Shown here: positions 30,901 through 42,540 of the stretch, in pieces | Position numbering within the stretch: the stretch's first letter is position 1 | How the letters are laid out: the number at the start of each line of letters is the position of its first letter | NCBI RefSeq assembly: GCF_032854445.1 | Contig: NC_088305.1 | Coordinates: 1,369,001 to 1,433,000 of the forward strand | DNA length: 64,000 nt | Direction: 5' to 3' | DNA from: Liolophura sinensis | Taxonomy: Eukaryota; Mollusca; Polyplacophora; Chitonida; Chitonidae | The notes under the pieces: generated by a model | Database searches by the model: none | Told to the model about the DNA's origin: nothing | Seen by the model: the letters and a program-made list of their open reading frames with translations, nothing else | Made by a program: the position numbers and the translations under genes

Positions 30901-33900
30901 TGTAAGGTCTGTCAGTAACCTGCGGATGGTTTCCCCTGGGCTCAGGTCAGTTTCCACCCTCCATGATGCTGGTCATTGCCATGTTAAATATTCTTGAGTG
31001 GGGCGTAAAACACCAATCAAATAAATAAATACAGTGATTTCACTTATCACTAAATTGATAAAAGTATACTTATTGTGGAGTGCTGAAGAATTGGCAAACC
31101 CACCCATCATTTGTTTTGTCCCCAAAATCATATTAAAAAATCACACTTTAAATGTAAAAACGTTGAGGAATACTAACCATTCATGTATCGGCTGTCTGCT
31201 ATATGGATATAGTGTATTTATTTATTTATTTACTTCATGACCACATTGAAGAATATTTCACTTCTACGATGGCGGCCAGCATTATGGTGGGAGGAAACCG
31301 GGCAGAGCCCTGGGGAACCCAGGACCATCCACAGGTTGTTGGCAGACCTTCGCACATGCAGCTGGAGAGGAAGCCAGTGTGAGCTGGACTTGAATTCCGA
31401 GCTACCGCATTGGTGGGAGGCTTTTCGGTCATTGTGCTGTGCTGGCATGCTATTAAACCCCCTCAACCACGAATATTTAATTAAATGGGGAACATGGATG
31501 TTGCAGGGTGAGCGTGGTGATTTGTTGAGTGCATATCATCGACGAATGACAGGCGATGATGCTGAGGAAAAACTGCTGTGTATTCGAGCCTGGAACAGGT
31601 GGGAAGATATTTTGTCACAGCTGGTGGCCGACGAAGAAGAGATAGAGGCCCGACGACAGAAGAGTGATGTGGCTGATCTCGAGCATGCCGTTACTGCGTG
31701 GTAAGCTACACCAGGGAGCATGTGTGACCTGTTCAAAAGGTGGTGCGTGGGGAGTGGGAGGGACACTCAGTCATGTCAGTATCAAAGCATCAAATTGCAC
31801 CGGGAAATATGTTCAGTCCTATGCGAATAAAAAAAACGGGCATATCGATTTGCCAGCTTTTATGACTTTCATCAGTTGTGCTAAAACAAATGTTGGCGCA
31901 TTTTTCGGGTGTGTACTTCACAGATCCTACTTTGTGGAGGATGGGTCTTTGGTTCAGCGCTTAACTGGTCAATCCTGTGTGCCGAGTGACAGCTGTCTCG
32001 ATACGCTGCCCAGTGAAGAGAACATCCGAATACCCCCACGGAAATACTGCTTTATGCAGTGTGCAAACATTCACAATGAAAACGACAGGCGGTATGTTTT
32101 TTCGGATGCAGTCATTGACTCATGGAAATGGACCACTGATGTCAGTGTGTGTATAAGCGTGTGTCTATATTGGGTTACGGATGTCGGCGTACTTTTCAGT
32201 TGCGCACTTTGTAGATCGGCGGCTTTGAAGGACATCGACAGTTGAGTGTTTTACTCGTTGATCATGTATACAGCGGTTACACTGTTGTATTTTTTGGGGT
32301 GACAGTGTACCGATGAAGTAACAGCGGTAATACTGCTGTATTTTTGGTTGTGACAGTACACCGATGAAGTAACAGCGGTAATACTGCTGTATTTTTGGGT
32401 GTGACAGTGTACCGATGAAGTAACAGCAGTAATACTGCTGTATTTTTGGGCGTGACAGTACACCGATGATGCTCGGCTCATGCATGTGGCTGTTTGTGCA
32501 GTATAACATTCGTTTGAAGGCCAACAGTATGGCATGCACACATGTATTTGTAAATCACATGTGTGAAAGTTACTCAGTCACTTGCCGAAGGTCGGTGGTT
32601 TACAGCAGGCACATCAGTTTCCTCCACCCATAAAACTGATGGTCTTTGTAGAAGTAAAATCTTTTGTGTATTACATTTAACAGCAATAAATTAATAAGAA
32701 ATATGAAATATGAAACAGAGAATAGCTTCTTAGCAATTTCTTATTTCTGTGCAGCCACTATTTTATACATGGAGGATGGCTGAGGTCGGACACACAGCTT
32801 TTGGATGATGTGGTCAAGATTCGTCATCTGCCAGGAATCATTATTCAGGGTCGTTATGACATTATCTGTCCCATGAGGACAGCCTGGGCTCTGCATAAGG
32901 TAACTCCAGTATAGTACAGGTGTGTGGGTCGTTATGACATGGTCGGTCCCATGAGGACAGCCTGGGCTTTGCATCAGGTAACTCCAGTATAGTACAGGTG
33001 TGTGGGTCGTTATGACATGGCCTGTCACATGAGGACAGCCTGGGCTCTGCATAAGGTAACTCCAGTATAGTACAAGTGTGTGGGTCGTTATGACATTATC
33101 TGTCTCATGAGGACAGCCAGGGCTCTGCATAAGGTAACTACAGTATAGTACAGGTGTGTGGGTCGTTATGACATGGTCTGTCCCATGAGGACAGCCTGGG
33201 CTCTGCATAAGGTAACTACAGTATAGTACATGTGTGTGGGTCGTTATGACATTATCTGTCCCATGAGGACAGCCTGGGCTCTGCATAAGGTAATTACAAT
33301 GTAGTACAGGTGTGTGGGTCGTTATGACATGGTCTGTCCCATGAGGACAGCCTGAGCTCTGCATAAGGTAACTACAGTATAGTACAGGTGTGTGGGTCTT
33401 TATGACATTATCTGTCCCGTGAGGACAGCCTGGGCTCTGCATAAGGTAACTACAGTATAGTACAGGTGTGTGGGTCGTTATGACATGGTCTGTCCCATGA
33501 GGACAGCCTGGGCTCTGCATAAGGTAATTACAGTATAGTACAAGTGTGTGGGTCGTTATGGACATTATCTGTCCCATGAGGACAGCCTGGGCTCTGCATA
33601 AGGTAACTCCAGTATAGTACAGGTGTGTGGGTCGTTATGACATGGTCTATCCCATGAGGACAGCCTGGGCTTTGCATAAGGTAACTTCAGTATAGTACAG
33701 GTGTGTGGGTCGTTATGACATGGTCTGTCCCATAAGGACAGCCTGGGCTCTGCATAAGGTAACTCCAGTATAGTACAGGTGTGTGGGTCGTTATGACATG
33801 GTCTGTCCCATGAGGACAGCCTGGGCTTTGCATAATTTAACTCCAGTATAGTACAGGTGTGTCGGTTGTTATGATATGGTCTGTCCCATGAGGACAGCCT

Positions 33901-42540: not shown

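What the first reader, a model, noticed from the sequence alone, without database searches (positions are those of the whole stretch)
32851..41866. An intron built from about 115 tandem copies of an exon end with its own splice donor
Seen: the 78-bp unit filling Pip intron 6 starts inside exon 6. It repeats 51 coding bases (including the catalytic GRYD codons) and the donor AAG|gtaact, plus 27 intron bases. The transcript therefore carries over a hundred near-identical 5' splice sites ahead of one 3' splice site at 42429. Every unit also carries a TAG in the exon frame, so using any downstream donor without an upstream acceptor would truncate the protein before the His of the triad. Inference: the array grew by slippage across the exon/intron border. 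It either poses a splice-choice problem, buffers the donor against mutation (any copy can replace another through gene conversion), or sequesters U1 snRNP.
Basis: partly seen in the sequence, partly recalled or inferred. Interest (0 to 1): 0.85.

Follow-up and report, generated by a model that had tools for sequence, protein, structure and literature searches.

The report
Intron made of copied exon ends
In a chiton's prolyl aminopeptidase gene, the end of one exon together with its splice signal has been copied more than a hundred times in a row into the following intron, and the real exon appears to have traded sequence with those copies, which makes it an unusual natural test of how cells pick the right splice site.

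Summary
Window 32848-41873 holds 117 tandem 78-bp units. Unit 1 is the true end of Pip exon 6 plus its donor; 114 of 117 units keep the donor GT. The genome matches Liolophura japonica, scaffold_7.

New here: a second Pip copy about 50 kb upstream carries the same kind of array in the same place (165 units, 148 with GT). The unit core occurs nowhere else exactly: 153 genome hits = 95 + 58. The two exon ends differ by a Met-Val to Ile-Ile change. Its ATTATC sequence is in 7 of 117 window units (exon included) and 0 of 165 upstream units, so exon and array appear to have exchanged sequence since the copies separated.

Intronic donors and codons show no significant constraint. No unit AG scores like a good acceptor, on matrices recalled from memory. 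Best reading: a minisatellite whose period spans the exon/intron border. Recombination regenerates an intact exon end and donor, and only the first donor has an exon behind it. U1 sequestration has no support. No RNA data were available, and copy number is uncertain: HiFi reads average 8.3 kb.

The parts
24982..25099 (+). Pip exon 1 in the window copy; two single-base insertions relative to the upstream copy break its frame (possibly base errors close to the contig edge)
28251..28374 (+). Pip exon 2
29310..29485 (+). Pip exon 3 (holds GGSWGS, the nucleophile Ser region; role recalled)
30519..30603 (+). Pip exon 4
31507..31700 (+). Pip exon 5
32755..32899 (+). Pip exon 6; its last 52 bases (32848-32899) are unit 1 of the array and encode [17 protein letters not shown]
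32897..32905 (+). first donor, AAG|GTAACT, the only one with an exon directly behind it
32848..41873 (+). 78-bp tandem array, 117 units (52 exon-like + 26 intron-like bases each); 114 with donor GT
38153..41815 (+). 1831/1832-bp block of 24 units present twice (units 69-92 and 93-116), no mismatch, one gap: very recent, or an assembly duplication
41816..41873 (+). degenerate last unit; donor lost by the same GG deletion in both gene copies
42430..42540 (+). Pip exon 7 with the catalytic His region (role recalled); acceptor TGTGTGTATTTGTTTTGCAG|C
23218..23417 (.). 200-N scaffold gap between the two Pip copies; homology of the window copy to the upstream copy starts at the first base after it

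Best explanation
This is a minisatellite whose 78-bp period happens to straddle the exon 6/intron 6 border of a chiton prolyl aminopeptidase gene. Because each unit holds the exon end, the donor and 26 intron bases in one register, unequal exchange or conversion between unit 1 (the real exon end) and any well-preserved later unit rebuilds an intact exon end and donor. The array can therefore grow, shrink and rewrite the last 17 codons of the exon at little cost, while selection acts on unit 1 alone. Splicing most likely joins the first donor to 42430, because only that donor has an upstream acceptor and an exon of normal length behind it (exon definition); the other copies are passengers. Shown: the array, its register, two gene copies with differing arrays, and a coding variant shared between exon and intronic units. 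Inferred: the recombination route, the use of the first donor, and the lack of function of the extra donors.
For: Array and register. A second Pip copy with its own 165-unit array in the same place. Turnover: of 99 variants 34 are shared between arrays, and two variants (unit index 30 and 34) are in 66 and 67 of 163 upstream intronic units and 0 of 115 window ones; whole blocks are duplicated. Exchange: ATTATC (Ile-Ile) in the window exon and units 4, 6, 8, 10, 19, 21, in 0 of 165 upstream units including that exon; the window exon unit is identical to unit 21. No significant coding constraint on intronic units: extra alleles per site 1.41, 1.29, 1.24 for codon positions 1, 2, 3 over both arrays; stops in the 51 coding bases of 44 of 163 and 26 of 115. 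The best AG in the unit scores 2.1, against 5.2-10.3 for 10 of 12 real acceptors of the two copies. Exon 6 to exon 7 at the first donor gives a gapless family alignment there.
Against: No RNA evidence for the donor used. Tests with duplicated 5' splice sites, as I recall them, often favour the donor nearest the 3' splice site, which would predict use of late copies. The excess of differences in the repeated part of exon 6 is not significant (3 of 52 against 1 of 93, Fisher P 0.13), so exchange rests on the shared two-base variant, which could in principle be parallel mutation. Some measures lean the other way without a test: the mean frequency of non-consensus bases is lower at donor sites (0.022) than at other exon sites (0.050) or intron sites (0.028), and rises a little over codon positions 1, 2, 3 (0.039, 0.049, 0.055).
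Confidence: 0.7

Rival explanations
1. The extra donors are functional: a redundant or cooperative platform that recruits U1 snRNP, buffers the donor, suppresses premature polyadenylation or sequesters U1.
For: 114 of 117 and 148 of 165 units keep GT; each consensus unit has a second donor-like site CAG|GTGTGT with score 9.3, 87 exact copies in the window array and 150 upstream; an array is present in both gene copies; non-consensus bases are somewhat rarer at donor sites.
Against: Donor sites are not significantly less variable than random sites (P 0.42, 0.10, 0.12); 16 of 165 upstream units have lost +1 G and such units recur in repeated blocks. Against U1 sequestration I recall that U1 snRNA is very abundant. 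No AATAAA in either array, so there is no such internal signal to suppress.
Confidence: 0.08
2. Units take part in splicing as alternative or recursive sites (mini-exons or ratchet points), so the array regulates Pip output through truncated or NMD-targeted isoforms.
For: Each consensus unit has AG|GT at CATAAG|GTAACT and TACAG|GTGTGT; the AG ending at unit index 66 would open a 63-base in-frame segment (read from the consensus unit).
Against: All six AGs of the consensus unit score from -2.8 to 2.1, where the 75th centile of AGs in the window, array included, is 1.9 (matrices recalled). Intronic units show no significant coding constraint.
Confidence: 0.1
3. Assembly artefact: the array is much shorter, or the two Pip copies are two alleles placed in tandem at a scaffold gap.
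For: Mean HiFi read 8,347 bp at 14x (PMC11068029) cannot span 9.0 or 12.8 kb as a rule; a 1.83-kb block is repeated with one gap; a 200-N gap lies between the copies, and homology starts at the first base after it; the first 1.8 kb of the window copy differs by only 13 substitutions in 1834 bases.
Against: Reads of 8 kb still hold about 100 units, so a long array is not in doubt. The two arrays have different variants. Copy divergence outside arrays is 2.57% (409 of 15915) against a stated heterozygosity of 1.24%. The homology ends inside both contigs, and the stretches tested beside it show no second full-length match among the candidates scored. The paper reports purge_dups.
Confidence: 0.12

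Closest known systems
Intronic minisatellites / VNTRs
   Same: Tandem units of tens of bases, block duplications, different lengths in related copies; other introns and flanks of the same gene hold such arrays too (64, 20, 51, 31 and 38 bp).
   Different: Here the period includes coding bases and a splice donor, and the first unit is part of an exon.
Intron gain by tandem genomic duplication (PMC3443670 and PMC2891723, passages seen; Zhuo 2007 and Gao & Lynch 2009 seen only as reference entries)
   Same: Tandem duplication of exon sequence with AG|GT at the border, so that copies become intron.
   Different: In that model the copied AGGT supplies the new intron's acceptor. Here the acceptor at 42430 is not a copy of the unit, so I infer that the duplications lengthened an existing intron.
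Silent-cassette conversion systems (recalled: pilS/pilE, vls, chicken V pseudogenes)
   Same: A tandem store of variant copies next to one expressed copy that shares variants with it.
   Different: No evidence of selected diversity or of a dedicated mechanism; the expressed part lies in a conserved region around a catalytic Asp.
Recursive splicing ratchet sites (recalled)
   Same: AG|GT within long introns.
   Different: The AGs are not preceded by a good polypyrimidine tract.

Membership tests
Prolyl aminopeptidase (TIGR01249) | Score above the curated cut-off over the full length | tested here: met
   393.4 bits against 259.75, residues 8-313 of 316, upstream copy; window exons 2-7 open
Prolyl aminopeptidase (TIGR01249) | Family motif blocks aligned with solved enzymes, no insertion at the exon 6/7 junction | tested here: met
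   1azw and 1qtr alignments; catalytic roles of Ser, Asp and His recalled
Minisatellite / VNTR | Head-to-tail repeats of about 10-100 bp | tested here: met
   78-bp period
Minisatellite / VNTR | Variable copy number among chromosomes | tested here: inconclusive
   117 against 165 units in two gene copies; no population data
Intron gain by tandem genomic duplication | Donor and acceptor of the intron derive from the same duplicated AGGT segment | tested here: not met
   Acceptor TTTTGCAG|CGTTGG at 42430 is unlike the unit
Recursive splice (ratchet) site | Acceptor with polypyrimidine tract directly followed by a donor | tested here: not met
   The two AG|GT sites score 0.1 and 2.1 as acceptors in the consensus unit (matrices recalled)
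Silent-cassette conversion system | Cassette variants appear in the expressed copy | tested here: met
   ATTATC variant shared by exon and six intronic units, direction unknown
Silent-cassette conversion system | Diversity selected for in the expressed copy | not testable with these tools
   Only two gene copies; pN 0.017, pS 0.032 over exons 2-7

The most novel reading that the evidence does not exclude
The intron works as a store of silent cassettes for the exon it adjoins: copies of an exon end, diversifying free of coding constraint, are repeatedly written back into the exon next to the catalytic Asp, so that an enzyme's active-site segment evolves in concert with its own intron. In the same transcript the first of more than a hundred near-identical donors must be chosen every time, which makes it a natural test of exon definition against the rule that favours the donor nearest the acceptor.
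Probability: 0.2. Interest if true: 0.85.

Novelty: new variant of a known kind. Interest (0 to 1): 0.6.

Why it matters
Donor choice among identical sites has, as I recall, been studied with a few engineered duplicates; here nature supplies over a hundred in one transcript, in two gene copies, with variants that tag many of the donors within a short read of the junction. That makes the choice between exon definition and acceptor proximity directly testable from RNA data that the genome paper says are deposited. The array also shows a coding exon end apparently evolving in concert with intronic copies, a route by which non-coding repeats can rewrite protein sequence.

Tried and rejected
Tried and rejected: (1) donor conservation across units as a sign of function: not significant. 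(2) Coding constraint on units as a sign that they are exons: none significant. (3) Acceptors inside the unit: none strong. (4) RNA structure of three units (window 34019-34252): z-score 0.25. (5) Other places in the genome with the exact unit core: none, 153 = 95 + 58; inexact copies were not sought beyond a first DNA search, which scored one of two candidates and did not show the upstream copy. (6) An apparent extra exon at about 31925-32090 (SYFVEDGS...) noted while reading: dropped, because the upstream copy lacks its AG and has a frame change there, and exon 5 joined to exon 6 directly gives CHYF, where the solved relatives have NHYF. (7) Exon 3 was first cut one base short, which gave a broken frame; corrected. 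(8) A branch-point-like TACTAAC beside the degenerate last unit: differs in the upstream copy (TGCTAAC), so not pursued. (9) Literature: searches listed no paper that I recognised, from titles and abstract starts, as describing a tandem array of exon ends with donors; two searches found no paper with the terms. These searches cover only open-licence PubMed Central papers, so this is no proof that it is not in print. Passages sought in PMC8724738 and PMC5389562 on choice between duplicated 5' splice sites gave only reference titles and 3' splice site work, so the acceptor-proximity rule stays recalled. No eukaryote relatives could be searched. Structure prediction was not run.

Full report
Where it is. 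The window is G000:C11:1369001-1433000 of a 609,464,459-base genome in 632 contigs; C11 is 32,819,725 bases long. The chiton Liolophura japonica assembly GCA_032854445.1 has 609,495,693 bases, 632 scaffolds and a scaffold_7 of 32,819,725 bases (PMC11068029: outline, passages and the results section seen). The totals differ by about 31 kb, which I cannot explain, but the scaffold length and count agree, and I take it to be that genome. It was built from HiFi reads of mean 8,347 bp at 14x, with hifiasm, purge_dups and YaHS; stated heterozygosity is 1.24%.

The gene. TIGR01249 matched exon by exon here and about 50 kb upstream. Seven exons joined from the upstream copy give an intact 316-residue protein that scores 393.4 bits against the prolyl aminopeptidase model (cut-off 259.75) and aligns to 1azw and 1qtr with no gap over GRYD...LHK|RWPEA. 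The window copy is open over exons 2-7; its exon 1 carries two one-base insertions relative to the upstream copy, possibly base errors, since other short insertions crowd the same 1.8 kb next to the scaffold gap (15 gap runs on the upstream side, 2 on the window side).

The array. 117 units of 78 bp run from 32848 to 41873. Unit 1 is the last 52 bases of exon 6 plus 26 intron bases. The array fills most of a 9,530-base intron. 114 of 117 units keep GT; 97 read AAG|GTAACT exactly. The consensus unit holds a second donor-like site, CAG|GTGTGT, with 87 exact copies in the array. Read-through of the real donor gives VTPV and a stop; 112 of 117 units carry an in-frame stop.

The second copy. C11:1351708-1364540 holds 165 units in the same place of the upstream Pip gene; 148 of 165 keep GT, and 16 have +1 G>A. 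That intron is 13,305 bases long. Outside arrays the copies differ by 409 substitutions in 15,915 bases, 2.57% (masked BLAST pieces of at least 200 columns and a shift of 46-52 kb; shorter and off-shift pieces dropped, so divergence may be understated). Homology runs from the first base after the 200-N gap to window 57840, which corresponds to window 9396 of the upstream copy; one further 72-base match lies about 240 bases beyond that edge. Three flanking stretches of about 1.5 kb have no second full-length match in the genome among the candidates scored (3 of 3, 40 of 2712 and 40 of 135). I read this as a true duplication, more likely than misplaced alleles, but not proven.

Turnover. Mean pairwise difference between intronic units is 6.2% upstream, 6.7% in the window and 7.3% between arrays; 34 of 99 variants are shared. 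Runs of up to 12 identical units recur at fixed lags in both arrays, and units 69-92 and 93-116 of the window array differ by one gap in 1,832 columns. So the array changes by blocks, through unequal exchange, or in part through assembly error that reads of about 8 kb could not exclude.

Exchange between exon and array. The two exon 6 sequences differ at four bases: one in the 93 bases outside the array and three in the 52 inside (Fisher P 0.13, not significant). The three are GGA/GGT (silent) and ATGGTC/ATTATC (Met-Val to Ile-Ile). ATTATC occurs in the window exon and units 4, 6, 8, 10, 19 and 21, and in none of 165 upstream units, exon included; the window exon unit is identical to unit 21. 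If the ancestral exon read Met-Val, Ile-Ile came into both exon and array on the window side; if it read Ile-Ile, the upstream exon was changed to the array's common form. Either way sequence crossed the exon/intron border after the copies separated, unless two adjacent bases changed in parallel. The direction is unknown.

No clear sign that intronic units are used. Extra alleles per site at codon positions 1, 2 and 3 are 1.41, 1.29 and 1.24 over both arrays (278 intronic units, 140 distinct; exon units and last units left out). The frequency of non-consensus bases rises slightly instead (0.039, 0.049, 0.055), which I did not test. The nine donor sites are not significantly less variable than random sites (P 0.42 upstream, 0.10 window, 0.12 both), though non-consensus bases are rarer there (0.022) than in the rest of the exon part (0.050) or the intron part (0.028). 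44 of 163 and 26 of 115 intronic units have stops in the 51 coding bases, and 14 and 15 have indels. Both real exon ends are intact, so I infer purifying selection on unit 1.

Splicing. With simple matrices recalled from memory, the exon 6 donor scores 8.8, the exon 7 acceptor 7.3 and the exon 6 acceptor 8.6. The six AGs of the consensus unit score from -2.8 to 2.1, where the 75th centile of AGs in the window (array included) is 1.9. The exon 5 acceptor scores -1.6 in both copies, so the matrix misses some real sites. Only the first donor lies at the end of a 145-base exon with a good acceptor. I infer exon definition picks it. As I recall, constructs with duplicated donors often favour the one nearest the 3' splice site; on that rule this gene should fail. 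The gene is thus a test case, and deposited RNA-seq could settle it.

Mechanism, with status. Shown: register, two arrays, block turnover, a shared coding variant, no significant constraint on intronic units. Inferred: unequal exchange or conversion as the route, first-donor use, passenger status of the rest. The first duplication cannot be read off; the acceptor is not a copy of the unit, so this is not intron gain by tandem genomic duplication as described in PMC3443670 (passages), but, I infer, growth of an existing intron.

Novelty. It is a variant of an intronic minisatellite. What sets it apart is that the period spans an exon end and its donor, that the expressed unit shares variants with the silent ones, and that an array is seen in two gene copies. 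Paper searches listed nothing that I recognised as the same from titles and abstract starts, within an open-licence library only.

Noticed in passing
window 1-9396 and about 46000-57840; C11:1342095-1378396 against 1392418-1426840: A segment of about 35 kb holding Pip and its downstream flank is present twice on the scaffold, with 2.57% substitutions outside arrays and several other tandem arrays of different length in the two copies.
   Followed up: partly
window 32270-32469; L009:7960-9331: A 51-bp minisatellite in intron 5 has 3.9 copies in the window copy and 27 in the upstream copy: another fast-changing array in the same gene.
   Followed up: no
window 9851-10860: A 33-bp (11-codon) tandem array overlaps an open frame that runs on into the start of a sulfotransferase domain (PF03567, E 6.5e-6): either an 11-residue protein repeat or another array touching a coding exon.
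   Followed up: partly
window 24982-25099: Exon 1 of the window Pip copy has two one-base insertions relative to the upstream copy, in a stretch rich in short insertions beside the scaffold gap.
   Followed up: partly
window 13303-20891: A 7.6-kb array of a 48-bp unit (158 copies, 77% matches) upstream of the scaffold gap, with long open frames on both strands.
   Followed up: no
window 31900-32090: A stretch in intron 5 that reads like an exon in the window copy (SYFVEDGS...) but has no AG acceptor and a frame change in the upstream copy.
   Followed up: partly
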